Source of the DNA: Tistrella mobilis KA081020-065
GTDB taxonomy: Bacteria > Pseudomonadota > Alphaproteobacteria > Tistrellales > Tistrellaceae
Direction: 5' to 3'
DNA: 64,000 bases
NCBI RefSeq assembly: GCF_000264455.2
Contig: NC_017958.1
Span: 749,001-813,000 of the forward strand
The notes beneath the pieces are model-generated. The model did no database searches. It was given only the letters and a program-made list of their open reading frames with translations, and was not told where the DNA came from. Shown here piece by piece: positions 18,524 to 45,181 of the stretch. The translations under genes and the position numbers were made by a program. Each line of letters starts with the position of its first letter. Within the stretch, counting starts at the first letter, position 1.

Positions 18524-20188
18524 ATGAAACACGTGACCGACCGCAGCGGAAAGGCGCCGGAACGTCAGTTCCAGGCACTCAATCGCCCGAAGAGACTGTC
18601 CGACGAGATCGCCCGGCAGATTTCCGAGCGGATCGCGACCGGCGTCTTCGCCCCGGGCGAACGCATGCCGACCGAGGCCGAACTCGCCGTCGAGTTCGCC
18701 GTGGGCCGCAGCGCCATCCGCGAGGCGATCGCAAAACTGAGGCAGGAAGGCCTGGTCACCACCCGCCAGGGTGTGGGCGCCTTCGTGACCGAGGATCCGG
18801 GTGCCGCCTCGTTCCAGATCGACACCGACGGGCTCAGGACCATCGAGGATTTCCGTCATGTGATGGAACTCCGCATGGAACTGGAGGTCAGCGTCGCGGC
18901 CATGGCCGCACGCCGGCGCAGCCGCGCCCAGCTGGAGAAGGTCGAAGAGGCGTTCCAGGCCCTCAAATCCCGGCTGGAGCGCGGGGAAGCGGCGGTCGAC
19001 GAACAGCACGCCTTTCACCGCGCGATCGCCATCGCGAGCAACAACCCGCATTTCCGCGACTTCATGCAGTTCCTGGCCTCGCGCATCCGCGTGGCGCTGT
19101 CGGTGGAAACCGAACGCGCGACCGGCGGCCGCGATGCCGCGCGCAAGCTGCTGCGTGAATTCGAGGGGATCCTGACGGCCGTCCGCCTGGGCGATCCGGA
19201 CAAGGCCCGCCGCGCGGCCTGGTTCCATCTGCTCAGATCCGCCGACCGCCTGGGCCTCCGCGGCCTGCAGGGTTGGGAAGAAAGCAGGATGACCTTGATC
19301 GGAGAGAACCTCATACCGGTCTGCGCGCCCGCAGATCCGCAGCCCCGCAAGCCGCGCTTCACCCCGCCGCCGGGCGCCTGCGACTGCCATGCGCATATTT
19401 TCGGGCCGGAAAGCCGCTACCCCTATACGCGGCACCGCACCTACACCCCGCCGGATGCCCTGCTGCCGGCCTATAAGCACATGCTCGCCACGCTGGGCAT
19501 CCAGCGCGCGGTGATCGTGCAGCCCAGCGTCTACGGCACCGACAACCGCGCGACGCTGGATGCGATCCGCGCCGGCGGCCCGGATTTCCGCGGCGTGGTA
19601 GTGGTGGACGAGAACATCGACACCGCCGAGATGGAACGGATGCACGAGGCCGGCGTGCGCGGCGTGCGCATCAACCTGCTGTTCAAGAGCGGGATCGAGG
19701 TCTCGGACGTCCGCCGTCTGGCCGAGAAGATCGCCCCCTTCGGCTGGCATATGCAGATGCTGATCGACGTGTCGGAATTCGCCGACATCCGCGAGACCCT
19801 GGGCCGCCTGCCGGTCGATGTGGTCTTCGACCATCTGGGCCATATGCCGACCTCGATCGGCACCGACCATCCGGGCTTTCAGGAGATGCTGTCGCTGCTG
19901 GCCGACGGCCGCGCCTGGGCCAAGATCTCGGGCGCCTATCGCATCACCTCGGCCAGCCGCACGCCCTATGACGACGTGGCGCCCTATGCCCGCGCGATCA
20001 TCGCGGCCAATCCGGAACGGGTGGTCTGGGCCAGCGACTGGCCGCACCCCTACGTCAACATCCCGATGCCGAATGACGGCGACCTGCTCGACATGCTCGA
20101 CGACTGGTCGCCCGACGCCGCCACGCGCGACCGCATTCTGGCAACCAACCCCGCCAGGCTCTACGGCTTCGAGGAGTCGTCGTTTTAG
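18524..20188 (+). CDS. GntR regulator fused to a lactonase-type amidohydrolase
   Basis: A single 554-residue frame with two complete domains. Residues about 20-250 are a FadR-type GntR regulator: winged helix (RIATGVFAPGERMPTEAEL, then GRSAIREAIAKLRQEGLV) and an FCD ligand domain ending at about 250. Residues about 275-550 are an amidohydrolase of the 2-pyrone-4,6-dicarboxylate lactonase / galactarolactone isomerase group: CDCHAHIFGP (metal-site H-x-H), FDHLGHM and WASDWPHP. An in-frame ATG at 19289, after purine-rich GGAAGAAAG, could start a separate enzyme. Usually these are two genes, so this is a true fusion or a frame with an internal start. The TRAP operon follows; its substrate is probably a lactone or sugar-type acid. 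Confidence 0.85.
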   Translation: MKHVTDRSGKAPERQFQALNRPKRLSDEIARQISERIATGVFAPGERMPTEAELAVEFAVGRSAIREAIAKLRQEGLVTTRQGVGAFVTEDPGAASFQIDTDGLRTIEDFRHVMELRMELEVSVAAMAARRRSRAQLEKVEEAFQALKSRLERGEAAVDEQHAFHRAIAIASNNPHFRDFMQFLASRIRVALSVETERATGGRDAARKLLREFEGILTAVRLGDPDKARRAAWFHLLRSADRLGLRGLQGWEESRMTLIGENLIPVCAPADPQPRKPRFTPPPGACDCHAHIFGPESRYPYTRHRTYTPPDALLPAYKHMLATLGIQRAVIVQPSVYGTDNRATLDAIRAGGPDFRGVVVVDENIDTAEMERMHEAGVRGVRINLLFKSGIEVSDVRRLAEKIAPFGWHMQMLIDVSEFADIRETLGRLPVDVVFDHLGHMPTSIGTDHPGFQEMLSLLADGRAWAKISGAYRITSASRTPYDDVAPYARAIIAANPERVVWASDWPHPYVNIPMPNDGDLLDMLDDWSPDAATRDRILATNPARLYGFEESSF

Positions 20189-20352
20189 CCCCTCGCCGGG
20201 CGGGCGCTCCCGCGCCCTTGGCCCCCGCCTCAATGGCGGGAGTCGTTTTAGCCCCTCGCCGGGCGGGCGCTCCCGCGCCCTTGGCCCCCGCCTCAATGGC
20301 GGGAGTCTGTCAGTCCCCCGGCCCAAGCGGGCGCTCCCGCGCCCTCGCCCCC
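20179..20352 (+). repeat. 63-base tandem repeat, two exact copies plus a degenerate third
   Basis: Copies at 20179-20241 and 20242-20304 are identical by eye; 20305 to about 20352 is a decayed third copy. The first copy contains the TAG stop codon of the fusion gene. Each full unit can form two hairpins: GGGCGC / GCGCCC with a TCCC loop, and CCGCC / GGCGG with a TCAAT loop. The block lies just upstream of the TRAP binding-protein gene, so it may act as an attenuator or RNA-stability element. Confidence 0.85.
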
Positions 20353-20390
20353 GTCTCGCGAACTGCCTGAAAAGCAAGAGGAACGCACCC

Positions 20391-23305: not shown

Positions 23306-23340
23306 GCCCCCGCCGGCCATCGGCGGGGGCCGTTTCGTTT
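23306..23340 (+). terminator. Rho-independent terminator after the first TRAP operon
   Basis: Perfect 10-base stem GCCCCCGCCG / CGGCGGGGGC with a GCCAT loop, followed by CGTTTCGTTTT. It lies 27 bases after the dctM stop. Confidence 0.88.
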
Positions 23341-23490: not shown

Positions 23491-24513
23491 ATGAAGGTCT
23501 ACGACTCGGTCCTGGATGCCGTCGGCGATACGCCGATGGTCCGGATCCGCCGCGTTGCGAGGGAGCTGCCGGCGGAGATCTTCGCCAAGCTCGAATTCAT
23601 GAACCCCGGTGGCAGCGTCAAGGACCGCCTGGTCCGCTACCTGCTGGAGCGGTATGAGGAAGCGGGCGCGCTGACGCCCGAGACCGTGCTGGTCGAGAAT
23701 TCCTCGGGCAATACCGGCGCCGCCCTGTCGATGGCGGCGGCCGTCCGCGGCATCGGCTGCGTGGTGACCATCCCCGACAAGATGAGCCCCGAGAAGATCG
23801 CCCGGATGCGCGCCTTCGGCACGAAGGTGGTGGTGGCCCCCACCGCCGTGCCGGCGGAAGCGCCCGAAAGCTATTACAGCCAGGCCCGGCGTATCGCCGA
23901 AGAGACGCCCGGAGCGATCTATCCGGACCAGTACAACAACCCGCTGAATGCAGCCGCCCATTACGCCAGCACCGGGCCCGAGATCTGGGAACAGACCGGC
24001 GGCCGGATCGACGCCTTCGTCTGCGGCATCGGCACCGGCGGCACGATCAGCGGCGTGGGCCGCTATCTGAAGGAACGGGATCCGTCGATCCGGGTGATCG
24101 GCGTCGACCCGGAAGGCAGCGTCTTCCACGACCAGTTCCATCACGGCCGGTTGAGCACACCGCATGTCTATCAGGTGGAGGGCATTGGCGAGGATTATCT
24201 GGTCGAGGCGGTGGATTTCTCGGTGATCGACGACATCATCCGGGTCGACGACAGGTCTTCGTTCCTGACCGCGCGCCGGCTGGTGCGCGAGGAAGGGCTG
24301 CTCTGCGGCGGATCGAGCGGGGCTGCGATGTGGGGCGCGCTGCAGGTGGCGGACCGCTTCCCCGGCGGCCGGATCGTGGTGCTGCTGCCCGATTCCGGCA
24401 ACATGTATCGCAGCAAGTTCCTGGATGATGCCTGGATGGTCCGGCATGGCCATCTGGCGGCTCCGACGGCAGCAACGCCGCAGGCCATGGCGGCCGTGGC
24501 AGGTGCAGAATGA
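23491..24513 (+). CDS. PLP-dependent cystathionine beta-synthase / cysteine synthase family enzyme
   Basis: A 340-residue fold-type II PLP enzyme that replaces the beta substituent of serine or an activated serine. The PLP lysine is K44 in GGSVKDR; NSSGNTG (70-76) binds the substrate carboxylate; GTGGT (181-185) holds the PLP phosphate. VDPEGS, QVEGIG and EEGLLCGGSSGAA match cystathionine beta-synthase closely, but the CBS regulatory domain is absent. SbnA, which makes diaminopropionate precursors for siderophores, belongs to the same fold. First gene of the operon; it overlaps the next start (ATGA). With no other cysteine or methionine genes nearby it probably makes a building block, such as a beta-substituted alanine, for the pathway. 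Confidence 0.88.
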   Translation: MKVYDSVLDAVGDTPMVRIRRVARELPAEIFAKLEFMNPGGSVKDRLVRYLLERYEEAGALTPETVLVENSSGNTGAALSMAAAVRGIGCVVTIPDKMSPEKIARMRAFGTKVVVAPTAVPAEAPESYYSQARRIAEETPGAIYPDQYNNPLNAAAHYASTGPEIWEQTGGRIDAFVCGIGTGGTISGVGRYLKERDPSIRVIGVDPEGSVFHDQFHHGRLSTPHVYQVEGIGEDYLVEAVDFSVIDDIIRVDDRSSFLTARRLVREEGLLCGGSSGAAMWGALQVADRFPGGRIVVLLPDSGNMYRSKFLDDAWMVRHGHLAAPTAATPQAMAAVAGAE

Positions 24514-25922
24514 CCGCCGTCGCAGCCGGGCCGTCCGTGGCCGAATCCCCGGTGGCGGCCGGCGTGATGCCGGGCGCGCGCTGGGCCTTCGCCGACCGCA
24601 TCGACCTGATGGACGAAAGCCTGCGCGAGGGCGCCGAACGCGCCAGCGTGCCGCCGGACCTGGACGCCAAATGCGATCTGGCCCGGGCGATCGCCGATGT
24701 CGGCATCCGCACGCTGGTGGTCGGCATGTTCCCCGACGTGCCGCAGAATGCCGAGTTGCTGGCACGGCTGGTGCGCCGCCAGCAGGCCGGGCAGCTGCCC
24801 GCCGATCTGCGCTTCATGGTCATCTCTCATGTCGGCGTGACCATGCGCCAGACGCTGGCCATGCTCGACGAACTGGCGATCCCGCTCGACACGGTGCATG
24901 TGATCGCGATCCATTCGGTTTCGGATCTGCAGATCACCCATCTGTTTCCGACCATTCTGCGCAAGGACGGCGCCGTCGACTGGGATCAGGCCGCCTGGGA
25001 GGCGCTGGACGATGCCACGCGGCGGGCGCGCAATCTGGACTGGCTGGCCGATTTCCTGCCGGTGGTGACCGGCTGGCGCGGCGGCGGGGTGATGGTCGGG
25101 TTGCTGGATGCCTTCCGCGCCGATCACGGCCATCTGATGAATGCGGTGGCAACCGTGGCCGCGGCCGGCATCCGCCAGATCCGCCTGGTCGACACCGCCG
25201 GCACCTGCCTGCCCCATCAGCTGCCCCAGACCGTGGGCGAGCCGGTGACGCGCTTCCCCGACATCGCCTTCTACGGCCATTTCCACGACGATTTCGGCAT
25301 GTCGACCGCCAATGCGGTGATGGGGCTGTCGCTGGGGCTGAAGGGGGTCGACGTCTCGGTCGGCGGCTTCGCCAACCGGGCCGGACATCCGCCGCTGGCC
25401 GAGGTGGTGATGGCGCTGCGCAAACTCTACGGCGTGGAGCTGCCGGGCGTGGACCCCAGCCGGCTGCACGGGCTGAGCCGGATGGCAGAGCGGATCTACG
25501 GGCTGATGGAAAACCCCGCCCAGGCGATCACCGGCGTCGTCACCCACAGCGTGCAGAGCGGCATCCGTACCGAGTTGCTGCGCAAGGCCCCGCGGATCTT
25601 CGACGCGATCGCCCCCGAAGAGGTCGGTGCCCGACTGGTGGCGATGTTCGGGGTGCGCAGCGGTCGCGACGGGCTGCTGCGCTTTCTGCGCGAACGCCAG
25701 CTGCTCGCCCCCTTCGGCCTGGAGCCGACGCCCGAGATCGCCGACGCGCTGTTCGAACATCTGGACGCCGAATGGGCCCGCCGCAGCGCCGGCGCCCGCG
25801 CAAGGCTGGGCGAGCTGATCGAACAGTATCAGGACACGCTGAACGCATCCTTCTTTACCGAAGAGGCTATGACGTCATGGCTGAGCGCGCATCTGACCGC
25901 CGTGCATATGAAGACGGCCTGA
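24510..25922 (+). CDS. DRE-TIM metallolyase, isopropylmalate / homocitrate synthase-like
   Basis: A 470-residue enzyme of the HMG-CoA lyase-like superfamily, which joins an acyl-CoA to a 2-oxo acid or cleaves such products. The barrel covers about residues 30-300. DESLREG (35-41) stands where LeuA has DTTLRDG; metal ligands are D35 and the two histidines of GHFHDDFGM (257 and 259). VDTAGTCLPHQLP (228-240) and SVGGFANRAGHPPL follow. The changed DRE motif (D-x-x-x-R-E) and the short C-terminus without the LeuA allosteric domain argue against leucine synthesis. Its place among PLP, diiron and ATP-grasp enzymes suggests it makes a special acid unit. Substrates are unknown. Confidence 0.82.
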   Translation: MTAVAAGPSVAESPVAAGVMPGARWAFADRIDLMDESLREGAERASVPPDLDAKCDLARAIADVGIRTLVVGMFPDVPQNAELLARLVRRQQAGQLPADLRFMVISHVGVTMRQTLAMLDELAIPLDTVHVIAIHSVSDLQITHLFPTILRKDGAVDWDQAAWEALDDATRRARNLDWLADFLPVVTGWRGGGVMVGLLDAFRADHGHLMNAVATVAAAGIRQIRLVDTAGTCLPHQLPQTVGEPVTRFPDIAFYGHFHDDFGMSTANAVMGLSLGLKGVDVSVGGFANRAGHPPLAEVVMALRKLYGVELPGVDPSRLHGLSRMAERIYGLMENPAQAITGVVTHSVQSGIRTELLRKAPRIFDAIAPEEVGARLVAMFGVRSGRDGLLRFLRERQLLAPFGLEPTPEIADALFEHLDAEWARRSAGARARLGELIEQYQDTLNASFFTEEAMTSWLSAHLTAVHMKTA

Positions 25923-26938
25923 CCGCCACCGCCGCCGCGACCGCGCTCTGGCCGATCTTCCGCGACCGGGTCGCCGGCGCCGATGAGGAACAGTGGCGCG
26001 ACATGCTCGACCTTGCGGCAATCGCGGCCGCCGGGCTGGCGCAGGAGGACGGGCTGGACCCGGTGGGCGACCTGGCCGTGCACCGGATGCTGTATGCCAT
26101 CTATGCCGGGCGGATCCTGGTGCCCTGGTCGCCGCAATGGCGCGATCTGGACGATGTCCGGGTCGATCTGCTGCGCCGGACGCTGGAAACCGGTTGGGAG
26201 GCGGCCGAACGCCGCCGGCTGACCGGCTTCTTCGGCCCCCTGCCGCAAGTGACGGATTTCGCCGGCTGGGCCACGCATCACTGCCAGGCCCACCGGTCCA
26301 ATGTCGGCCATCCGCTGTTCGATTTCCTGAGCGACCGGGCCAGCTTCGACCAGCTGCGCAGCTTCATCGTTCAGGAAACCCCCTTCGACATCCATTTCGG
26401 CGACATCGTGGCCATGATGCTGCCGGGGGTGCATGGCGGCGCCAAGGCCGAGTTCTCGCGCAATTTCTGGGACGAGATGGGCCGCGGCGACCAGCGGCTG
26501 GCGCATCGCCAGCTCCGGCTCGACATGATGACGGCGCTGGGCGTGCGCGAGGATGTACATGTCACCGAGGTCGAGGCCTTCTGCCTGGAGGAACTTCGCC
26601 TCGCCAACATGTATTTCCACAGCGTGTTCAACCGCGCCCTGCTGCCCCAGGCGATCGGCATGATGCTGGCCACCGAACTGATGGTTCCCGGGCGGCTGGA
26701 CCGGCAGATCCAGGGCTGGCGGCGGGTCGGGCTGGATGACGACACCATGCGCTATCTGATCGAACACACCGTGGTCGACATCGAACACGCCGCCGGCTGG
26801 ATGAACGAGGTGGTGCTGCCGATGCTGGCCGAGCGCCCCGAGGTGATGGGCGAGATCGTCCTCGGCATGGCCCGCCGGCTGGAACATGCCGCCGCGGTCT
26901 GCGACCGGATGATGATGCTCCTGCCTGCGGCGGCCTGA
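25877..26938 (+). CDS. Haem-oxygenase-like diiron oxidase (iron-containing redox enzyme family)
   Basis: A 353-residue, largely helical protein of the iron-containing redox enzyme (HDO) family. Candidate metal ligands are spaced as in that family: E167 (IVQE), E200 and H210 (NFWDEMGRGDQRLAH), and D301/H304 (DIEHAAGW), with E267 (ATELM) between. Known relatives such as SznF, BesC and UndA use O2 for N-oxygenation or C-C cleavage in natural-product pathways. The ATG at 25877 overlaps the previous gene by 46 bases; a later start would lose the first helix. The N-terminal 120 residues are less familiar. The exact reaction cannot be given. Confidence 0.8.
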   Translation: MAERASDRRAYEDGLTATAAATALWPIFRDRVAGADEEQWRDMLDLAAIAAAGLAQEDGLDPVGDLAVHRMLYAIYAGRILVPWSPQWRDLDDVRVDLLRRTLETGWEAAERRRLTGFFGPLPQVTDFAGWATHHCQAHRSNVGHPLFDFLSDRASFDQLRSFIVQETPFDIHFGDIVAMMLPGVHGGAKAEFSRNFWDEMGRGDQRLAHRQLRLDMMTALGVREDVHVTEVEAFCLEELRLANMYFHSVFNRALLPQAIGMMLATELMVPGRLDRQIQGWRRVGLDDDTMRYLIEHTVVDIEHAAGWMNEVVLPMLAERPEVMGEIVLGMARRLEHAAAVCDRMMMLLPAAA

Positions 26939-28183
26939 ATGACCGCCCTCGCCGTTGGAGACCTTCTCTCCCAAACCCCTGCCGCTGAGATCGTCCTTGC
27001 CGGCTGCGGGCTGAGGGGCATGGGGCTGCTCACTGCGACTCCGGCCCTGCTCGACCACCGCCTGACGGTGATCGATGCGGGGCCGCGGCCGGGGCCTGGG
27101 GCTTTTCCGGGATACCGGATCCAGTCCAATTCGACCGGCTCGGATTTCTTCGGCTGGGTGGATCCGGCGGGGCCCTTCGGCCCCGTGCTGGACGATCCGG
27201 CCGTGCGCCGGCTGCGCGAGCACCGGGGCGCCTTCGATCTGGCGCTGCTGGCAGGCGCCCTCGACCGCTTCGGCGACAGGCTGGCCACGCTGCTGCCGCC
27301 CGACCGGCTGATCCGGGAAGATCCGCTGGTGCATGTAGCGGTGGACAAAGAGGCGATCGGGCTGACCCTCGCCTCGGGCCGCCGCATCGACACCCGGGCA
27401 CTGGTGCTGGCGCTGGGCATCACCGAGCCCGCCCATGACGCTCTCGCCCCCTGGGCGGCGCGTACGATCCCGTCGGGCCGGATCGTACGCGACCATCTGG
27501 CCGCCCTGCCGCCTCTACCCGCAGACAGACCGGTGCGGATCGTGATCGCCGGCGGATCGCACAGCGCCTATTCGGCCGCCCTGGTGCTGGCCGATGCCGT
27601 GGATGCGGGCCGGCTTTCGGCCGAGGTCACCATCCTGCATCGCGGACCCGCCCGGCTGTTCTACCCGAACATGGACGCCCAGGTCGCCGAGCCGCATGGC
27701 CCGCTGGAGGCCCTGCCCGACCTCGCCCGCGACATCTGCCCGGAAACCGGCCAGGTCTTTCGCTATTCGGGGCTGCGCCACCGGGCCCGCGCCCTGTTCC
27801 GCGAGATCGCCCAAGGCGCGCGCCAGGGCTTCACCCAGCGGCAGATCCCGGCGATCGACGATGCGGCCGACCTGCTGGACCGGGCCGATCTGATCGTCCA
27901 GGCGCTGGGCTATCAAAGCCGCAGACTGGCCATGACCATCGACGGCCGGCCCTGGGATCCCGCAGGCGGACGGGCCGTGGTCCGCCCCGGCCCTGACGGC
28001 CGGATCCCGCTGCCCGAGGGGTCGCCCGCGCAGATCTTCGTGATGGGCATGGACCCCTACCCCTATGACGACGGCGCGCTGACCCCGACGGGGCAGTATG
28101 CGTTGCGTGGCGGCCAGATTCTGGCCGCCCTTGCCCGGCCGCCTGCGGCCGGACAGCCCCTCCCCCTCGCAGAACCCGTATGA
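26939..28183 (+). CDS. FAD/NAD(P)-binding oxidoreductase, N-hydroxylase-like
   Basis: A 414-residue flavoprotein. The N-terminal dinucleotide loop is AGCGLRGMG (about 21-29) and a second nucleotide loop, IAGGSHSAYSAALVL (about 202-216), fits NADPH binding as in SidA/PvdA/IucD-type N-hydroxylating monooxygenases. QALGYQSRRL near 320 resembles the family's ALGY motif. The start ATG immediately follows the preceding stop (TGAATG). In this operon it could N-hydroxylate an amine or reduce an intermediate. The monooxygenase reading is inference; a simple disulfide- or thioredoxin-reductase-like role is the alternative, though no CxxC pair is seen. Confidence 0.72.
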   Translation: MTALAVGDLLSQTPAAEIVLAGCGLRGMGLLTATPALLDHRLTVIDAGPRPGPGAFPGYRIQSNSTGSDFFGWVDPAGPFGPVLDDPAVRRLREHRGAFDLALLAGALDRFGDRLATLLPPDRLIREDPLVHVAVDKEAIGLTLASGRRIDTRALVLALGITEPAHDALAPWAARTIPSGRIVRDHLAALPPLPADRPVRIVIAGGSHSAYSAALVLADAVDAGRLSAEVTILHRGPARLFYPNMDAQVAEPHGPLEALPDLARDICPETGQVFRYSGLRHRARALFREIAQGARQGFTQRQIPAIDDAADLLDRADLIVQALGYQSRRLAMTIDGRPWDPAGGRAVVRPGPDGRIPLPEGSPAQIFVMGMDPYPYDDGALTPTGQYALRGGQILAALARPPAAGQPLPLAEPV

Positions 28184-28192
28184 GGTACGGCC

Positions 28193-29479
28193 ATGGCGCA
28201 TATGGTCTTCGTGGAAACCACCCGCCCCGCCACGCGGGCGATCGATCATGCGCTGGCCATGGGGCACGAGGTGACGCTGATCCGCTCCGGCCGTTTCGAC
28301 TGGCTGTTACCGCCCGCCGAGCATGAGCGGATCCGCACGCTCGGCATCCGCCGGGTGGAGATCGCCGACACCCGCTCGGATACGCTGATCGAGGCGGCGC
28401 TGCGGGATCTGATGGCCGGCGGGCCGGTCGATGCGGTGCTGACCGCCCTGCAGCCGGCGGCCACCCCGGCGGCGATCGCGGCCGGCCGGCTCGGCATCCG
28501 GGCCACGGCGGCACGGGGCATGATCAATGCCCGCGACAAGGCGCTGACGCGGGCGGCACTCGACCGCGCCGGGCTGCCCTCGGTCGCCCATGCCACCGTC
28601 CGCACGCTGGAAGATGCCCTCGACGCCGCGGCGCGCATCGGCTACCCGGTGATCGTGAAGCCGGTGAACGGTCTGGGCAAGGCACTGACCACCTGGGCGA
28701 AGACGCCCGACGACATCCACCGCCATTTCGCCACCCTGGCCGAACGCCGCGAGGTGCTGCAGACCGGTCTTGCCGACGAGCTGGCCGATGCCGCTTTCAT
28801 CATCGAAGAGATCGCCCGTGGCCCGCTGCATTCGCTGGAACTGGCGGGCCTCGCCTCGGGCGCCAAGGTGCCGCTGATCCTGGTGCGGCGGAAGACCGGC
28901 CGTGACGATCCGGTTCTGGAGATGGGCTCCACCGTCCCCGCCCCGCTTTCCGCCGAAGACCGCCGGGCGGCGGGGGATTATGCGGTGGCCGTGGCCGAGG
29001 CGCTGGGCCTCGACATCGGCATCTTCCATATCGAGTTGATCATGACCGACAGGGGGCCGCGGCTGGTGGAGGTGAACCCGCGGATTGCCGGCGGCGCCAT
29101 CCCCGATCTGATCCGCACCGCCACCGGCATCGACCCGTTCGAGCTGCTGGTGCGCGTCCATGCCGGCGAAAGCCCGGTTTCGGACTGGCTGCCCGAGACC
29201 TGTGCCGCCAGCCACAGCTTCATCACCATGGCCGAAGACTGCACCGTGCGCGCCGATCTGGCACCCGACTGGTTCGAAGCCTTCCGGCCGCGCATGGCCT
29301 CGGGTGGTTGCGACATCCGCCCCGGGGCCAGCTACCGGCGCATGGACGGCAACCAGGACGTGTTAGGTGTTGTTCGAATGGTTGCACCAACCATCGGCGA
29401 GGCGGCCGCCGCCTGCGAGGCGCTGCGGGCCGAGATCGCCGAAACACTGGGCGTGAAACTGGTGGAGCTGGTCGAATGA
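28193..29479 (+). CDS. ATP-grasp carboxylate-amine ligase
   Basis: A 428-residue ATP-grasp ligase, which activates a carboxylate as acyl phosphate and couples it to an amine. Residues about 1-100 form the pre-ATP-grasp domain; ARDKALTRAALDRAGLP (about 113-129) and PVIVKPVNGLGKAL (about 151-164) begin the ATP domain. IEEIARG (about 203-209) and the Mg-binding VEVNPRIAGGAIPDLI (about 285-300) complete it. This resembles L-amino acid ligases (BacD type) that build dipeptides. It follows the FAD gene after 9 bases and overlaps the MFS start (ATGA). Probably joins the two building blocks made by the upstream enzymes. Confidence 0.88.
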   Translation: MAHMVFVETTRPATRAIDHALAMGHEVTLIRSGRFDWLLPPAEHERIRTLGIRRVEIADTRSDTLIEAALRDLMAGGPVDAVLTALQPAATPAAIAAGRLGIRATAARGMINARDKALTRAALDRAGLPSVAHATVRTLEDALDAAARIGYPVIVKPVNGLGKALTTWAKTPDDIHRHFATLAERREVLQTGLADELADAAFIIEEIARGPLHSLELAGLASGAKVPLILVRRKTGRDDPVLEMGSTVPAPLSAEDRRAAGDYAVAVAEALGLDIGIFHIELIMTDRGPRLVEVNPRIAGGAIPDLIRTATGIDPFELLVRVHAGESPVSDWLPETCAASHSFITMAEDCTVRADLAPDWFEAFRPRMASGGCDIRPGASYRRMDGNQDVLGVVRMVAPTIGEAAAACEALRAEIAETLGVKLVELVE

Positions 29480-30720
29480 GCGGCACCACCCCAGCCCTGC
29501 CCTCGCGGCTTGCGCTCTTCGCCGATCGGCGGTTCCTGCTGCTCTGGGCGGCGATGCTGGTCAGCGCCACCGGCACCTTCATGCTGCTGCTTGCGGTTTC
29601 GGCCGAATTACTGAAGCGCCACGGCTCGGGGCTGGGTGCCGCCTCGGTCTTCGCCTTTCAGTGGATCCTGCCGGTGGTGGCGGTGTCGCTGGTCCGCCGG
29701 CTGGCGGAAAGCCGGCGGCTGCGCCGCACGGTGATCCTGGCCGAAATCGCCGGGGCCGTGATCTCTCTGGCGATCGGCCTGCTGCTGACCGCCGATCTGA
29801 CCGTGGCGGTGCTCGCCTGCTTCCTGATCCGGGGCCTGGCCGAAGCGGTGACCAAGACCTCGCGGGTGGTGCTGGTCAAGCTGATGTTCCAGGGGCCGGC
29901 GCTGACGCTTGCCTCGTCCACCTTCAACCTGTCCTTTTATGTCGGCGGGGCGCTGGGCGGGCTGGCGGGTGCGGTGGCGGTAGAACATCTGCCGCTGATC
30001 GGCGTCTGCGCGGTCGACGCCATGACCTTCCTGATCTCGGCCGCCTGCTATCGGGCGCTGCCCGATCTGAGGCCGGCCGACGACGCAGCCCCCCGCGCGC
30101 CCGGCCGGCGAAGGGGCGCGATTGCCGAAGCGCTGACGCTGATGCGCGCCGATCGGCGGCTCTGGCTGGCGGCGGGCTATGTCGTGGCCGCAACCGGCGT
30201 GCTGCAGGGGTTTCACAACACCGCCCGGGTGGTGCTGCCCATGCGCCATCTGGGGCTGGATGAAAGCGCGGTGATGCATCTGCAGATCACCAGCGGCCTC
30301 GCCATCATCCTGGGGGCGGTGGCGATCCCGGTGCTGGGGGCGCTGGCCCGCCATCGCAGCTTCGCGCCGCTCACCCATCTGGGGGCCTGCGTGATGCTTT
30401 GGGCGGTGACGCTGGTCGCCGGCGAGACGGGGCTACATCTCGGCTATTTCGCCTATATCTTCCTGTTCGAAGCCGCCTTCACCGCCGCCCAGGCCCAGCT
30501 GATCCAGGCCACGCCCAGCCGCGACATGGCCACGATGCAGGCGGCGGTGGGGGCGCTGGGCACCAGCCTGCTGATCGGCTGCACGCTGTTGAGCGGCGCG
30601 CTCGCCGATCTGATGCCGCTGCCGGTGGTCGCTGCGATCACGGCCGGGATCGGGGTCGTCATCCTGCTCGGCATCGAGGCCGGCAGCCGCCACGGCAGCC
30701 GCAAGGCGGCCGGTATCTGA
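29476..30720 (+). CDS. MFS transporter, copy 1
   Basis: A 414-residue major facilitator protein with about 12 hydrophobic helices, similar to small-molecule exporters of the EntS/MFS_3 kind. The first pair of helices contains SATGTFMLLLAVSAELL and the loop after helix 2 is basic (VRRLAESRRLRR). The start overlaps the ATP-grasp stop by ATGA. It is paralogous to the next gene across its whole length. In a biosynthetic operon it most likely exports the product, or imports its metal complex. Confidence 0.88.
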   Translation: MSGTTPALPSRLALFADRRFLLLWAAMLVSATGTFMLLLAVSAELLKRHGSGLGAASVFAFQWILPVVAVSLVRRLAESRRLRRTVILAEIAGAVISLAIGLLLTADLTVAVLACFLIRGLAEAVTKTSRVVLVKLMFQGPALTLASSTFNLSFYVGGALGGLAGAVAVEHLPLIGVCAVDAMTFLISAACYRALPDLRPADDAAPRAPGRRRGAIAEALTLMRADRRLWLAAGYVVAATGVLQGFHNTARVVLPMRHLGLDESAVMHLQITSGLAIILGAVAIPVLGALARHRSFAPLTHLGACVMLWAVTLVAGETGLHLGYFAYIFLFEAAFTAAQAQLIQATPSRDMATMQAAVGALGTSLLIGCTLLSGALADLMPLPVVAAITAGIGVVILLGIEAGSRHGSRKAAGI

Positions 30721-30736
30721 TGAAGGCCCATATCTG

Positions 30737-32011
30737 GTGAAGGGACTGCTGCACGACCGCAACTTCCTGCTGATCCAGGCGGCGACGCTGATCAGCGCCA
30801 CCGGCAGCTTCATGCTGCTGCTGGCGGTTTCGGCCGAGCTGTTGCGGCGGTCGGGATCGGGGCTGGGGGCGGCGTCGGTCTTCGCCTTTCAATGGATCCT
30901 GCCGGTTCTGGCGGTCTCGGCCGTGCGCCGGATTGCCGATCAGCCGGGGCTGCGGCGGGTGCTGGTCCTGGCGGAACTGGCCGGCGGCGCGCTGTCGCTC
31001 GCCATCGGCCTGCTGCTCACGGCCGATCTGCTGCCGCTCGTCCTCGGCTGCTTCCTGCTGCGCGGCTTCGGCGAGGGGGTGACCCGCACCGGCCGCGTCG
31101 TCCTGCTGCGCCGGCTGTTCGACGGCCCGCGTCTGGCCGCGGCCGCGTCCAGCTTCAACATCGCCTTCTACACCGGTGCCACGCTGGGCGGCGTGGCGGG
31201 CGGGCTGGTGGTCGGGCGGCTGCCGCTGACCGAAATCTGCGCCCTCGATGCCGCAAGCTTCGTGGTGGCGGCGTTGTGCTGGCGGGCACTACCCGATGCA
31301 CGCGGCAGCACAGATACAACAAAAAGAAGTAGCGGCGCCATTCGCGACGCCCTGCGGCTGATGGCCGGCAACCCGGCCCTGCTGCGTCAGGCCGGCTATG
31401 TCGTGCTCTCGACCGGCATCTTCCAGGGCTTCCACAATGCCGCCCGCACCCTGTTGCCCATGCGCGGGCTGGGACTGGACGACCGGGCGGTGATGCATCT
31501 GCAGGTGGCAAGCGGGCTTGCCATCATCCTGGGGGCGGTGCTGGTGCCGCTGCTGGGCGGGCTCTCCCGCCGCCGCTGGCTGACGCCCTGCGCCTGTGCT
31601 CTTGCCTGCCTGCTGCTGGTGGCCGCCAGCCGCGCCCCCGGGCTCGGCCTGCTGATCGCCGCCTATCTGGCCTTCCTGGTCGCCTTCGAACTGGCCTTCA
31701 CCGCCGCCCAGGCCGGGCTGATCCAGGCCGCAACCACCAGCCAGATGGCGACCATGCAGGCCGCCGCCAATGCCGGCGGCACGGCCCTGGTCATCCTGGT
31801 GACGCTGGCGACCGGCGGGCTGGCCGATCTGATGCCGATGGCGGCCGTGGGCCCGGTGATCGGCGTTGCGGGGCTGACGCTGATCGCCGGGCTGGAGCTG
31901 GTGGCGCGGCGGACTCGGGCAATGCTGTCTCAGGCGATGCTGTCGACCACGCCGCCATCCACCCGCAGGGCGGCGCCGGTGGTGGCGGACGACAGCGGCG
32001 AGGCCAGATAG
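30737..32011 (+). CDS. MFS transporter, copy 2 (tandem paralogue)
   Basis: A 424-residue major facilitator protein, plainly a sister of the preceding gene: both share SATG-FMLLLAVSAELL, GSGLGAASVFAFQWILPV and a SGLAIILGAV helix. It uses a GTG start at 30737; an ATG at 30721 leads to a stop after six codons. Its last 82 bases overlap the 3' end of the SDR gene on the other strand, where the tail (about 25 residues) is hydrophilic and unlike copy 1. Both copies are intact, so they may form a pair or handle different products. Confidence 0.86.
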   Translation: MKGLLHDRNFLLIQAATLISATGSFMLLLAVSAELLRRSGSGLGAASVFAFQWILPVLAVSAVRRIADQPGLRRVLVLAELAGGALSLAIGLLLTADLLPLVLGCFLLRGFGEGVTRTGRVVLLRRLFDGPRLAAAASSFNIAFYTGATLGGVAGGLVVGRLPLTEICALDAASFVVAALCWRALPDARGSTDTTKRSSGAIRDALRLMAGNPALLRQAGYVVLSTGIFQGFHNAARTLLPMRGLGLDDRAVMHLQVASGLAIILGAVLVPLLGGLSRRRWLTPCACALACLLLVAASRAPGLGLLIAAYLAFLVAFELAFTAAQAGLIQAATTSQMATMQAAANAGGTALVILVTLATGGLADLMPMAAVGPVIGVAGLTLIAGLELVARRTRAMLSQAMLSTTPPSTRRAAPVVADDSGEAR

Positions 32012-41422: not shown

Positions 41423-42625
41423 TCAACTCCGGGCGCCGGCAGCCTTCGCCAGCATGGCCACGGCGCGGTCGACCTCGGCCTCGGTGGTGAATCGGCCGAG
41501 GCCGAGGCGCAGGGCCGCCGTCACCCGCGCATCGGCGAGTTTCAGCGCCCGGAGCACGTAGGACGGCTCCACCGCCGCCGAGGAACAGGCCGAACCGGCC
41601 GACATGGCGATGTCGGGCAGCGCCCGGATGATCCGGTCGGCCTCGGTGCCGGGGATCGAGAGATTGAGGTTGTGCGGCACCCGGGGGGTATGGCCGGGGG
41701 CATCGGTGCCGGTAAAGGCGGCACCGTTGATTTCGGGCGTGAGCCCGGCGGCACTCAACCCAGCCAGCAGGCGCAGATGCAGCCGGCCGATGCGCTGCGT
41801 TTCTTCCGGCCCTTCCTGACGCGCCAGACGGGCCGCCTCGCCCAGGCCGACGACAAGTGGGGTCGGCAGGGTGCCGGCCCGCAGGCCGCGTTCCTGGCGG
41901 CCGCCATCGAACAGCGGCTGGATGCGGTCCTCGATCCCCCGGCGCACGAACAATGCGCCAACGCCCTTGGGGCCGTAGATCTTGTGGCCCGACAGGCTGA
42001 GCATGTCGACGGGGACACGGCGCAGGTCGAGCGGGATGCGCCCTGCCGCCTGGGCGGCATCGGTGTGGACCAGGGCGCCCCGATCATGGGCGCGGGCGGC
42101 GATTTCGGCGACCGGCTGGACGGTGCCGATCTCGTTGTTCACCGCCATCACCGAGACCAGCAGCGTGTCGTCGCGCAGCACCGCCGCGACCGCATCGGCC
42201 CGCACGATGCCGTCGGGACCGGGCGGCACCACCGTCACCTCGAAGCCATGGGCTGCGGCCATGCGCTCGGCCGCCGCCAGCACGCAGCGATGCTCGATCG
42301 CGCTCACCACCAGATGCCGGCGCGGATCGCCGGCCGCCACCGCCGCCAGCGCCACGCCCTTGATCGCGAGGTTGTTCGATTCGGTGGCGCCCGAGGTGAA
42401 GACGATCTCGCCCTGATCGGCGCCGATCAGGGTCGCAACCTGGCGCCGCGCCTTGACCACCGCGGCATCGGCATCCCAGCCCCAGCGATGGGTGGCGGAA
42501 TGCGGGTTGCCGAACTGGGTGGTGAGATAGGGCATCATCGCCTCAAGCACCCGCGGGTCCATGGGCGTGGTCGCCTGGTTGTCCAGATAGATCGGCGCCG
42601 CCGGACAGTCGGTATCGTCGCTCAT
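41423..42625 (-). CDS. Cysteine desulfurase (IscS/NifS family)
   Basis: Takes sulfur from cysteine as an enzyme persulfide for Fe-S clusters and other sulfur uses. The 400-residue protein has YLDNQATTPMDPRV at the N-terminus, TSGATESNN, the PLP lysine in SLSGHKIYGPKG (about 211) and the active cysteine in SAGSACSSAAVEPS (about 336), close to the IscS loop. The ATG at 42625 has GGAGG 11 bases upstream; longer starts at 42643 and 42652 are possible. It follows a second desulfurase on the same strand. The usual scaffold genes (iscU or sufB) are not in the window. Confidence 0.9.
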   Translation of the reverse strand: MSDDTDCPAAPIYLDNQATTPMDPRVLEAMMPYLTTQFGNPHSATHRWGWDADAAVVKARRQVATLIGADQGEIVFTSGATESNNLAIKGVALAAVAAGDPRRHLVVSAIEHRCVLAAAERMAAAHGFEVTVVPPGPDGIVRADAVAAVLRDDTLLVSVMAVNNEIGTVQPVAEIAARAHDRGALVHTDAAQAAGRIPLDLRRVPVDMLSLSGHKIYGPKGVGALFVRRGIEDRIQPLFDGGRQERGLRAGTLPTPLVVGLGEAARLARQEGPEETQRIGRLHLRLLAGLSAAGLTPEINGAAFTGTDAPGHTPRVPHNLNLSIPGTEADRIIRALPDIAMSAGSACSSAAVEPSYVLRALKLADARVTAALRLGLGRFTTEAEVDRAVAMLAKAAGARS

Positions 42626-42744
42626 GCGGCCGGGAGCCTCCATAGCGGTCATCGCATCACGTCTCCGTCACCGGCCCGATCGGGGCCCCCGGTTGTCGTT
42701 CCGTCGCAGTCGGCACCCGCCGGATGACGCACGCGCCGCAGATC

Positions 42745-43881
42745 TCATTCGGCCGCAGCCCGGTTCCGCCGGGCTGCCATGCGGCACCAGGCGGCGATGA
42801 AGGCCTCGGCGTCATCGGCCGTGCTGCCGGCCCCCAGGCTGACCCTGATCGCCTGGCCGGCCAGATCCCCCAGCCCCATCGCGGCCAGCACCGGGCTTGC
42901 CGCCACCTTGCCCGAGGAGCAGGCGGAGCCGGCCGAGACCGCGATGCCGGCCAGATCCATCCGCATCACCTGGGTTTCGGCGGCGATGCCCGGCAGCACC
43001 ACCGACAGGGTGTTGGCGACCCGGCCGAAGGCGGCATCCCGCCCCGGGAACAGGACATCCGGCGCCGCATCGGCAAGTGCGGCCTGGATCCGGTCGCGCA
43101 GCGCCGCCAGACGCAGCGCCTCGGCCGCCCGATCCGTGGCGCCGAGCACCGCGGCCGCCGCCCCGAAACCGGCAATGCCGGCCAGGTTCTCGGTACCGCC
43201 GCGGCGGCGGTATTCCTGCCCGCCGGGGATCAGCGCCGCAGGTTCGATCTCCGGCCCCGCGACCAGCACGCCCACCCCCTTGGGGCCGCCGATCTTATGG
43301 GCGGAGAGTGACAGGAAATCGACGGCACCGCACAAGGTTCCGAGGTCGAGCCGTCCGGCGGCCTGCACCGCGTCGCAGGCGACGCGCCCGCCCCGGGCAT
43401 GGACCAGCGCCGCGATCTCCGCCACCGGCTGGATGACCCCGGTCTCGTTGTTGACCGCCATCACCGCGACGAGCGCACCGGCGCCGCCATCCGGCAGCCG
43501 ATCCAGCATGGCCGCGACCGCATGCGGGTGGACGACGCCCTGATCGTCGACCGGAATGCGCGGGGCATGGGGCGCCGCCGCCAGCACGCTGTCATGCTCT
43601 ACGGCCGACACCGCAAGCGGGCCCATCCCCGCCTGATGTAGCATCCAGGCATTGGATTCGCTGCCGCCCGAGGTGAACAGCACACGGTCGGGCCGGGCGC
43701 CGCAGAGTGCGGCGATCTCGGCCCGGGCCTGTTCTACCACCGCCCGCGCGGCGCGGCCCTCGGCATGAACCGAGGACGGGTTGCCGGCCAGATCCAGCAC
43801 CTCGATCATTCGCGCCCGCGCCGCCGGCAGCAACGGCGCGCCGGCATTGTGATCCAGGAAATGACGCACGGCACCGGTCAT
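42745..43881 (-). CDS. Cysteine desulfurase family protein, second copy
   Basis: A 378-residue NifS-like PLP enzyme. FLDHNAGAPLLPAAR at the N-terminus, TSGGSESNAW, the PLP lysine in SLSAHKIGGPKGVG (about 190) and the active cysteine in SAGSACSSGKV (about 317). N-A-G in place of the common N-A-T-T and a shortened middle set it apart from the copy downstream. Its start overlaps the Rrf2 stop (4 bases). Rrf2 - desulfurase - desulfurase runs are common in alphaproteobacterial Suf loci, so this probably opens a sulfur-mobilising operon. Confidence 0.88.
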   Translation of the reverse strand: MTGAVRHFLDHNAGAPLLPAARARMIEVLDLAGNPSSVHAEGRAARAVVEQARAEIAALCGARPDRVLFTSGGSESNAWMLHQAGMGPLAVSAVEHDSVLAAAPHAPRIPVDDQGVVHPHAVAAMLDRLPDGGAGALVAVMAVNNETGVIQPVAEIAALVHARGGRVACDAVQAAGRLDLGTLCGAVDFLSLSAHKIGGPKGVGVLVAGPEIEPAALIPGGQEYRRRGGTENLAGIAGFGAAAAVLGATDRAAEALRLAALRDRIQAALADAAPDVLFPGRDAAFGRVANTLSVVLPGIAAETQVMRMDLAGIAVSAGSACSSGKVAASPVLAAMGLGDLAGQAIRVSLGAGSTADDAEAFIAAWCRMAARRNRAAAE

Positions 43882-44399
43882 GGGTGATCACCCCGATGCG
43901 CCGCGGCCAGATCGGCGATGCTGACCCGGGCGAGCCTGTCGCGGACCCCGGCATCGACCGCCTGCCAGAGGGCGACCACGCCGCAGCCGAAACGGCCTTC
44001 CACCCCCCGCAGCCGGCCATCGCCACCTTCGACCGCGGCCACCACATCGGCAACGCTGATCGCCTCGGGCGCGCGGGTCAGGCAGTAGCCGCCGGCAGCC
44101 CCCCGGGCGCTGCGCACCAGGCCGCGCCGGCGCAACTTGCGGAACAGCTGCTCCAGATAGGCGGGCGGAATGTCGGCACAGGTGGCGATGTCGGAAATGC
44201 AGGTCGGCGTGGCGCAGCGCCGCCGGGCCAGTTCAACCATGGCCACCACCGCATAATGCGCGCGCGCGCCCACCCGGACCACGCCCGACCCGCCCGCCGC
44301 CTCACGCGCGGCCGGGCGGGCGCGCCGGGGCAGATCGGCGGTCCCGGAACAGTCGGGCTCGGCGGTTTCGATGGCGGCACTGTCGAAGCTGTCGGGCAT
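43878..44399 (-). CDS. Rrf2 family transcriptional regulator (IscR-like, single cysteine)
   Basis: A 173-residue Rrf2 regulator. The winged helix covers ARAHYAVVAMVELARR through PPAYLEQLFRKLRRRGLVRSARGAAGGYCL. Enterobacterial IscR holds its 2Fe-2S cluster with three cysteines and a histidine; here only one cysteine (FGCGVV) lies in that loop, as in the Rhodobacter IscR-like protein that still senses iron. The ATG at 44399 leaves about 40 low-complexity residues before the normal family start, so a GTG at about the VGARAHYAVV position may be the real start. It is followed by two desulfurases with a 4-base overlap and preceded by cysE. Confidence 0.85.
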   Translation of the reverse strand: MPDSFDSAAIETAEPDCSGTADLPRRARPAAREAAGGSGVVRVGARAHYAVVAMVELARRRCATPTCISDIATCADIPPAYLEQLFRKLRRRGLVRSARGAAGGYCLTRAPEAISVADVVAAVEGGDGRLRGVEGRFGCGVVALWQAVDAGVRDRLARVSIADLAAAHRGDHP

Positions 44400-44440
44400 G
44401 GGGCGCAGCCTGGGCTTTGTGAATTCGTAAGAGGTGCTGG

Positions 44441-45181
44441 TCAGCGCCGGTCGGCGGCGCCGGGCAGGCGGTGGATGCGGGCTTCGGCATCGGTGACGGC
44501 CCGGGCATGGGCGTCGGGGTCGAGCCCGGCCTCCAGCTCGCTCACCCGCGCCGACAGGCGCTGCACCTCGCTCAACAGCCCGTCGACGATCCGCGACATC
44601 GGGTCCGGCAGGTCCGGGGTGCCGATCGCATAGGCGTCGAAACGGCGCATCTCTTCGTCCAGCCCGCCGCGGGCCTTGACGATCCGGCCCGGGATGCCGA
44701 CCACGGTGGCGCCCGGCGGAACGTCCTTGACCACCACGGCGTTGGAGCCGATGCGAGCATCGGCGCCGACCGTGATCGGCCCCAGCACCTTGGCACCCGC
44801 ACCCACGATGGTGCCTTCCAGCACGGTGGGATGGCGCTTGCCCTTCTCCCAGCTGGTGCCGCCCAGCGTCACACCCTGATAGAGGGTGACGTTGTCGGCG
44901 ATCTCGGTGGTTTCGCCGATCACCACGCCCATGCCGTGGTCGATGAAGAAGCCATGGCCGATGGTGGCGCCGGGATGAATTTCGATCGCGGTCAGGAAGC
45001 GCCCCAGATGCGACACCCAGCGCCCGAGCAGCTTGAAATTCCGCCGCCACAGCCAGTTCGCGACCCGGTAAATCATGATCGCGTGGAAGCCGGGATAGCA
45101 GAGAATCACCTCCAGCCGGCTGCGCACCGCAGGGTCACGATCGAACACCACGTCGATCTCGCGTTTCAGGCTCTTGAACAT
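44441..45181 (-). CDS. cysE: Serine O-acetyltransferase
   Basis: Acetyl-CoA plus L-serine gives O-acetylserine, the cysteine precursor. The 246-residue protein ends its N-terminal helices with a left-handed beta-helix of hexapeptide repeats: [23 protein letters not shown] (in pieces), [13 protein letters not shown] and [15 protein letters not shown]. The catalytic histidine lies in IDHGMG. The start [10 protein letters not shown] fits the family. It lies 41 bases ahead of the Rrf2 gene, so cysteine supply and cysteine desulfuration are in one transcription unit. The C-terminal tail (from about 195) is helical and longer than in E. coli. Confidence 0.92.

What the first reader, a model, noticed from the sequence alone, without database searches (positions are those of the whole stretch)
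23491..32011. Seven-gene operon that looks like an undescribed NRPS/PKS-free small-molecule or metallophore pathway
Seen: one promoter-like site, then a CBS-like PLP enzyme, an isopropylmalate-synthase-like condensing enzyme with an altered DRE motif, a haem-oxygenase-like diiron enzyme, an FAD N-hydroxylase-like enzyme, an ATP-grasp ligase and two MFS transporters, mostly with overlapping stop/start codons. Known: each family recurs in amino-acid-derived natural products (SbnA-type PLP enzymes in staphyloferrin B, SznF/BesC-type diiron enzymes, BacD-type ligases). I do not know this combination. Inference: a PLP-made amino acid and a condensed acid unit are oxidised at nitrogen or carbon, ligated, and exported.
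Basis: partly seen in the sequence, partly recalled or inferred. Interest (0 to 1): 0.82.

Follow-up and report, generated by a model that had tools for sequence, protein, structure and literature searches.

The report
Undescribed amino-acid-derived metabolite gene cluster
A seven-gene operon that very probably builds and exports a small oxidised amino-acid conjugate; its core genes recur, rarely, in unrelated bacteria, and one of its enzymes has lost residues that its best-known relatives use.

Summary
The operon is real and more than chance. All six gene types cluster again in two Burkholderia, three Pseudomonas and one Actinomadura, four of them in two Streptomyces; all seven genes are under purifying selection against a same-genus genome. 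None of the listings and passages from ten library searches describes it. The haem-oxygenase-like enzyme (HDO) is nearest to the lysine N-oxygenase HrmI; the flavoenzyme folds like N-hydroxylating monooxygenases. A CBS gene is clustered with this HDO type in three CBS lineages, once without the HMGL gene, so the HDO may act on a CBS product. HMGL and HDO are one fused protein in Pseudomonas fontis, so they probably act in sequence. Best reading: a CBS-made thioether amino acid is oxidised by the HDO, changed at carbon by a Claisen-incompetent DRE-TIM enzyme, N-hydroxylated, ligated and exported. Substrate, order and product are inferred. New variant of a known kind.

The parts
23306..23330 (+). 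Terminator-like hairpin between the upstream TRAP transporter and the operon
   Evidence: 11-pair stem, T-rich tail; weak alone (4 found, 3.5 expected); similar sequence at the same place in L048
23361..23427 (+). AT-rich block and sigma-70-like promoter TTGACG-16-TACAGT
   Evidence: hexamers, spacing and AT-rich block the same in L048
23491..24513 (+). PLP enzyme, CBS type without the regulatory domain (340 aa)
   Evidence: PALP 281.7 bits; TIGR01137 CBS 408 bits, below its cut-off 510; best PDB sequence matches are CBS; tree
24510..25922 (+). HMGL-like / DRE-TIM enzyme with the Claisen Glu and His positions changed (470 aa)
   Evidence: HMGL-like 93 bits; model to homocitrate synthase 6ktq Z 28.9, rmsd 2.5, 270 aligned; residue comparison
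25877..26938 (+). Haem-oxygenase-like diiron oxidase/oxygenase, HrmI-like (353 aa)
   Evidence: Haem_oxygenas_2 144.8 bits; best PDB HrmI E 6e-25; E200, H210, E267, H297, D301, H304 invariant in 13 of 13
26939..28183 (+). Flavoenzyme with the fold of N-hydroxylating monooxygenases (414 aa)
   Evidence: Pyr_redox_2 below cut-off; AlphaFold2 pLDDT 82.7; Foldseek best rows putrescine, cadaverine and ornithine N-hydroxylases; VIA-align best row PvdA, tied with general flavin monooxygenases
28193..29479 (+). ATP-grasp ligase, L-amino-acid-ligase-like (428 aa)
   Evidence: ATP-grasp_4 54.8 bits; best PDB BL00235 and BacD
29476..30720 (+). MFS transporter 1, presumed exporter (414 aa)
   Evidence: MFS_1 66 bits; H+ antiporter model 40.5 bits, far below cut-off 319.6
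30737..32011 (+). MFS transporter 2, 56% identical to MFS1 (424 aa)
   Evidence: MFS_1 62.8 bits; identity; only one such gene in L004-L008 and L010

Best explanation
A biosynthetic operon for a small, exported, N-oxygenated amino-acid conjugate. Proposed order: (1) the CBS-type PLP enzyme makes a beta-substituted alanine, most likely L-cystathionine or another thioether (my probability for a thioether about 0.35); (2) the diiron HDO oxidises that product, by homology at nitrogen, less likely by C-C cleavage; (3) the DRE-TIM protein, working in tandem with the HDO and lacking the Claisen acid/base pair, makes or breaks a carbon-carbon bond on the oxidised intermediate without a standard acetyl-CoA condensation; (4) the flavoenzyme N-hydroxylates an amine; (5) the ATP-grasp ligase joins the unit to an amino acid; (6) MFS proteins export it. 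Shown: genes, families, synteny, fusion, residue changes, purifying selection. Inferred: substrates, order, product, direction of transport. An antimetabolite role is the likeliest use (inference).
For: HMGL+HDO adjacent in 11 of 11 close loci; FAD and ATP-grasp in 9 of 11, PLP in 8 of 11, this MFS in 6 of 11. HMGL-HDO fusion, 823 aa without inner stop, in P. fontis L009. A CBS-type gene clustered with this HDO in three CBS lineages: proteobacterial cluster clade (support 1.0); Actinomadura L010, a full-length CBS at the far end of the cluster, with a second CBS elsewhere in the genome; B. stagnalis L090, directly upstream of the HDO, with no HMGL match in the 20.9-kb locus. HDO nearest to HrmI. 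N-hydroxylase fold. Ligase family. dN/dS 0.07-0.22 for all seven genes. Distances of five genes correlate pairwise at 0.84-0.98.
Against: L011, L013 (Streptomyces) and L014 have no PLP match in the locus, so step 1 may be supplied elsewhere or be dispensable; L014 is only 6 kb. L009 and L012 have no FAD or ATP-grasp match, so steps 4-5 are optional. The L090 pairing is a single locus, and a Legionella PLP 62.6% identical to the L090 one has no annotated HDO neighbour. The joint support for the CBS grouping is 0.9 in one tree and 0.71 in the other. No substrate was tested, and HDO reactions vary widely (PMC13108848, passages and section 4 read). Transport direction rests on weak models.
Confidence: 0.55

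Rival explanations
1. Metallophore operon: an aminocarboxylate or hydroxamate chelator is made and exported for iron, zinc or copper.
For: N-hydroxylase fold; CBS homologues make aminopolycarboxylate chelators such as aspergillomarasmine (recalled); MFS genes.
Against: No TonB receptor or siderophore uptake family among 20 further window ORFs scanned, 2 of which matched nothing, nor among 10 proteins flanking relatives. One Rrf2-type regulator, a family described as iron-dependent, lies about 12 kb away. If the strain is Tistrella mobilis KA081020-065 (recall), it has one siderophore cluster, on plasmid 2 (PMC10391617, passages).
Confidence: 0.1
2. The HMGL-like protein is an ordinary isopropylmalate/homocitrate-type synthase that condenses acetyl-CoA with a 2-oxoacid to supply an acid unit.
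For: Best sequence and fold matches are IPMS and homocitrate synthases; DRE and both metal histidines intact.
Against: Positions aligned with the LeuA Glu (CED) and His (SGIH) are Leu/Ile and Arg in 12 of 12; GER Glu is Asn and AGN Asn is His. No isomerase or dehydrogenase in the operon. Catalytic roles of the LeuA residues are recalled, and not every own-genome homologue shows that Glu in the alignment.
Confidence: 0.15
3. A belactosin/hormaomycin-like route: the HDO makes a nitro amino acid from lysine, which is then built into a ligated peptide.
For: HDO nearest to HrmI; ATP-grasp ligase present.
Against: No 2-oxoglutarate enzyme among the seven genes, whereas a Streptomyces plasmid HDO 34.5% identical to ours has one beside it; the CBS clustering is unexplained.
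Confidence: 0.1
4. A catabolic operon that breaks down a thioether or nitro compound.
For: Neighbouring genes look catabolic (TRAP transporter, FAA hydrolase, cupin, SDRs).
Against: ATP-grasp ligase; in L009 and L012 the same core sits beside KS/ACP or condensation-thioesterase and AMP-ligase genes; rare, patchy distribution.
Confidence: 0.06

Closest known systems
Mangotoxin operon mboABCDEF (PMC13185094; abstract, part 1 of 6 and passages read)
   Same: NRPS-free: HDO plus ATP-grasp ligases in a small operon making a peptide antimetabolite
   Different: Mbo has two ligases, a flavin/Fe2S2 reductase MboB and an arginine deiminase MboE; ours has CBS, DRE-TIM and an N-hydroxylase-fold enzyme. 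The paper counts at least 25 HDO+ATP-grasp cluster types; whether ours is one could not be read (supplement)
HrmI/BelK lysine N-oxygenases (hormaomycin, belactosin)
   Same: Closest solved relative of the HDO; the six metal-ligand positions agree in the alignment
   Different: No 2-oxoglutarate partner enzyme in the operon; substrate unknown
Cystathionine beta-synthase
   Same: PLP enzyme falls in the CBS part of the tree
   Different: No regulatory domain in the window copy; below the NCBIfam cut-off
Isopropylmalate/homocitrate synthases (DRE-TIM)
   Same: Fold, DRE motif, metal histidines
   Different: Glu and His positions changed; ANRAGH in place of GERAGN
PvdA/KtzI/DfoA N-hydroxylating monooxygenases
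   Same: Fold
   Different: 12-16% identity in the structural alignments; only Pyr_redox_2, below cut-off, in Pfam
BacD and BL00235 L-amino-acid ligases
   Same: ATP-grasp_4 domain; LAL_C2 below cut-off
   Different: NF053745 50.7 bits against cut-off 850

Membership tests
HDO superfamily | Haem_oxygenas_2 domain | tested here: met
   144.8 bits, cut-off 28.9
HDO superfamily | 3 His / 3 carboxylate ligand set | tested here: met
   E200, H210, E267, H297, D301, H304 invariant in 13 of 13 and aligned with HrmI; ligand roles by analogy
HDO superfamily | Binds two irons and activates oxygen | not testable with these tools
   needs purified protein
DRE-TIM metallolyases | DRE motif and metal histidines | tested here: met
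   D35, R39, E40, H257, H259 in 12 of 12
Claisen-condensing IPMS/HCS subgroup | Glu of the CED/SPED segment and His of SGIH (roles recalled) | tested here: not met
   Leu/Ile199 and Arg353 in 12 of 12; own-genome LeuA (L076) has both; two PDB alignments agree
SbnA | NCBIfam TIGR03945 cut-off | tested here: not met
   240.9 against 349.95
Cystathionine beta-synthase | Groups with CBS rather than cysteine synthase | tested here: met
   tree of 30 sequences, joint support 0.9; 0.71 with L090 added; PDB ranking
Cystathionine beta-synthase | TIGR01137 equivalog cut-off | tested here: not met
   408.4 against 510.25; model end unmatched
Class B N-hydroxylating monooxygenases | Fold | tested here: met
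   VIA Z 22.1 to PvdA, rmsd 4.4, 331 aligned, tied with general flavin monooxygenases; Foldseek
Class B N-hydroxylating monooxygenases | NADPH-dependent N-hydroxylation | not testable with these tools
   flavin monooxygenase and reductase folds score Z 17-22 too
L-amino-acid ligases | ATP-grasp_4 domain | tested here: met
   54.8 bits, cut-off 27
Mangotoxin operon | MboB-type flavin/Fe2S2 reductase and MboE-type deiminase | tested here: not met
   no such family among the seven genes
Metallophore operon | Linked uptake receptor or metal regulator | tested here: inconclusive
   no receptor among 20 window ORFs and 10 proteins flanking relatives; one Rrf2 gene 12 kb away; unlinked genes not excluded

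The most novel reading that the evidence does not exclude
The HMGL-like family is a new kind of DRE-TIM enzyme: paired or fused with an N-oxygenating HDO, it forms or breaks a carbon-carbon bond next to an N-oxidised carbon (nitro or oxime activated, Henry-type), which would need neither acetyl-CoA nor the lost acid/base pair, and it does so on a cystathionine-derived amino acid.
Probability: 0.1. Interest if true: 0.85.

Novelty: new variant of a known kind. Interest (0 to 1): 0.56.

Why it matters
It offers a compact, patchily distributed pathway to an unknown natural product, with two enzymes worth assaying on their own: a DRE-TIM protein without the Claisen pair that is fused to a diiron oxygenase in one species, and an HDO that repeatedly clusters with cystathionine beta-synthase. 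The five enzymes could be reconstituted in vitro, as was done for mangotoxin.

Tried and rejected
SbnA/diaminopropionate route: rejected on NCBIfam score and tree. Standard isopropylmalate-type condensation: made unlikely by residue changes. Mangotoxin identity: rejected on gene content. Metallophore: no linked receptor found.

Led nowhere: plasmid search with the HMGL protein, no match at 1e-40; PHROGs, nothing for HDO or FAD. Rarity searches at E 1e-100 found no carrier beyond the seed genomes: 1 of 397 Pseudomonadota (the own genome), 2 of 398 in the genus of L006, 1 of 392 in the genus of L011, 1 of 250 in the family of L010, 2 of 65 in the genus of L004 (samples, except the last). The HDO alone in 96 relatives: 3, of which own genome, the same-genus genome and one 26% match. 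HDO alignment in 377 Pseudomonadota: 6 at 1e-30; the five besides the own genome are 29-32% identical with no other operon gene matched in their 3.7-kb loci.

Caveats and dropped rows. The 32 relatives (33 loci; L047 fell to a length filter) were fetched by patterns of this protein and are themselves mostly atypical at the Glu and His positions (Glu in 2, His in 2 of 32), so the argument rests on the own-genome LeuA and two PDB alignments. In one search L077 also shows the Glu, L078 and L079 do not at that column; L078 and L079 show the His, L077 does not; L080 gave no match and was dropped. The model is poor at 335-385, where R353 lies. In one search the pair L004-L005 was left out; the permutation (0 or 1 of 5000 reaching the observed value) does not correct for shared ancestry. 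The L009 start and other starts were chosen by eye.

Literature, all ten searches; searches returned nothing. Papers seen: PMC13185094 (abstract, part 1 of 6, passages), PMC13108848 (passages, section 4), PMC7912996, PMC5592201, PMC9964501, PMC10391617 (passages only); the rest as listings. None describes the cluster; supplements were not open to me. B. singularis LMG 28155 inhibits bacteria but no fraction kept the activity (PMC7912996): a loose hint; that strain was not checked for the cluster (LMG 28154 has it).
Full report
Observation. The seven genes are present at the stated coordinates on the + strand. The junctions are tight: -4, -46, 0, +9, -4 and +16 bases. A terminator-like hairpin and one sigma-70-like site precede the first gene; neither exceeds chance clearly by itself, but the hexamers, their spacing and an AT-rich block are the same in a same-genus genome, L048. 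In that genome all seven genes are present at 84-97% protein identity with dN/dS of 0.07-0.22 and no inner stops. The operon lies on a 1,126,962-base contig of a genome whose contig C1 has 3,919,492 bases; from recall these sizes fit Tistrella mobilis KA081020-065, which I did not verify.

Conservation. A search of one genome per species with the HMGL-like protein returned 44 loci. The 11 with 57-69% identity come from Burkholderia (2), Pseudomonas (4), Actinomadura (1), Streptomyces (2) and two metagenome bins. All 11 have the HDO directly downstream; 9 of 11 have the flavoenzyme, 9 the ATP-grasp gene, 8 the PLP gene and 6 an MFS gene of this type. Of the other 33 loci (24-36% identity) none matches PLP, HDO, FAD, ATP-grasp or MFS at E 1e-5 (6 match a flanking SDR gene), though several are cut by contig ends. 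In L004-L008 the order PLP-HMGL-HDO-FAD-ATP-grasp-MFS is that of the window. Pairwise distances of the five enzymes correlate at 0.84-0.98. The cluster is rare: in five further samples only the seed genomes carried it. Patchy presence across two phyla with co-varying genes points to horizontal transfer as a unit (inference).

Variants. In Pseudomonas fontis (L009) the HMGL-like and HDO parts are one 823-residue protein, followed by two fatty acid desaturases, a protein of no known family, a PLP decarboxylase, an acyl carrier protein and a ketosynthase. In a betaproteobacterial bin (L012) the core lies with a condensation-carrier-thioesterase protein, a FAD monooxygenase and an AMP ligase. In both Streptomyces loci a second ATP-grasp gene follows the first (family check of L011) and no PLP gene is found. 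So HMGL+HDO, mostly with PLP, is a building-block module, and the FAD/ATP-grasp/MFS part is one of at least three ways of using it (inference).

PLP enzyme. It scores highest against the CBS model (408 bits, cut-off 510) and below the SbnA cut-off; its best PDB relatives are CBS enzymes. In a tree of 30 sequences the nine proteobacterial cluster copies form a clade (support 1.0) that joins actinobacterial CBS (0.9), while the Actinomadura cluster copy, a full-length CBS at the far end of its cluster, groups with the other CBS of its genome (0.93) and those of Streptomyces (1.0). A third case is B. stagnalis L090: a CBS-like gene lies directly upstream of an HDO 44.6% identical to ours, with no HMGL match in the locus, and that CBS groups (1.0) with a full-length CBS, L059, of the genome that holds L014. 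A CBS gene has thus been brought together with this HDO type more than once, which suggests that the HDO acts on a CBS product. Against this: both Streptomyces clusters lack the gene (their genomes hold a CBS), L090 is one locus, and a Legionella relative of its PLP has no annotated HDO beside it.

HMGL-like enzyme. The AlphaFold2 model (pLDDT 75.7; poor at 335-385) matches homocitrate and isopropylmalate synthases (6ktq Z 28.9, rmsd 2.5, 270 aligned). DRE and the metal histidines are intact. Compared with the LeuA of the same genome, the Glu of the CED segment is Leu (10) or Ile (2), the His of SGIH is Arg, GER Glu is Asn and AGN Asn is His in 12 of 12 family members; the two PDB alignments printed agree for Glu and His. 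The roles of that Glu and His in the Claisen reaction are recalled. Other own-genome homologues are mixed at the Glu column. The likeliest meaning is a changed reaction, not loss of function, since purifying selection persists.

HDO and flavoenzyme. The HDO's nearest solved relative is HrmI (E 6e-25); 3bjd, 8w1q and SznF follow at 2e-5 to 5e-5. Six metal-ligand positions are invariant in 13 of 13. HrmI turns the lysine side-chain amine into a nitro group (PMC13108848, passages), hence N-oxygenation as first guess. The flavoenzyme has almost no sequence relatives in the libraries searched, but Foldseek ranks putrescine, cadaverine and ornithine N-hydroxylases first for its model (pLDDT 82.7). 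In the second alignment PvdA is first (Z 22.1) but tied with general flavin monooxygenases.

Known systems. The nearest described cluster in the papers seen is mangotoxin (PMC13185094; abstract, first sixth and passages read): HDO plus ATP-grasp ligases, but different partners. That paper counts at least 25 cluster types with an HDO and an ATP-grasp gene; ours may be one of them, unnamed. Ten searches of the library gave no description of this gene set in what I saw; subscription papers are mostly not held.

Verdict. A real, conserved, apparently undescribed biosynthetic cluster. The product class (oxidised, ligated, exported amino-acid conjugate) follows from family content; the substrate (a thioether such as cystathionine) and the DRE-TIM reaction are hypotheses.

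Noticed in passing
window 18524-20188: A GntR/FCD regulator and an Amidohydro_2 enzyme are read as one 554-aa open frame; a frame with the same start region is open at L048 286-2046 (586 aa).
   Followed up: no
window 20179-20357: Tandem array of a 63-base GC-rich unit, 2.8 copies, 89% matches, at the end of the amidohydrolase frame and before the DctP gene.
   Followed up: partly
L048 5119-9940: In the same-genus genome several kilobases with other genes lie between the TRAP operon and the hairpin and promoter of this operon, so the hairpin stays with the operon.
   Followed up: partly
L090 7380-18143: B. stagnalis cluster: FA_hydroxylase, CBS-like, HDO, fatty acid desaturase, DAO, metallo-beta-lactamase fold, DUF3291, PLP decarboxylase, LuxR regulator; similar desaturase (26%) and decarboxylase (30%) in P. 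fontis L009.
   Followed up: partly
L092 9731-12359: Streptomyces plasmid: HDO beside a 2OG-Fe dioxygenase and dapF, as in hormaomycin/belactosin-type modules (label recalled).
   Followed up: no
L093 5072-8627: Paraburkholderia plasmid: HDO near a peptide ligase PGM1-related gene and a 2OG-Fe dioxygenase, another HDO-ligase neighbourhood.
   Followed up: no
L007 138-978: Fragments that look like a transposase lie upstream of the P. avellanae copy (reading, no family search).
   Followed up: no
window 41426-45050: Two Aminotran_5 proteins and an Rrf2 regulator, perhaps an iron-sulfur assembly operon.
   Followed up: no
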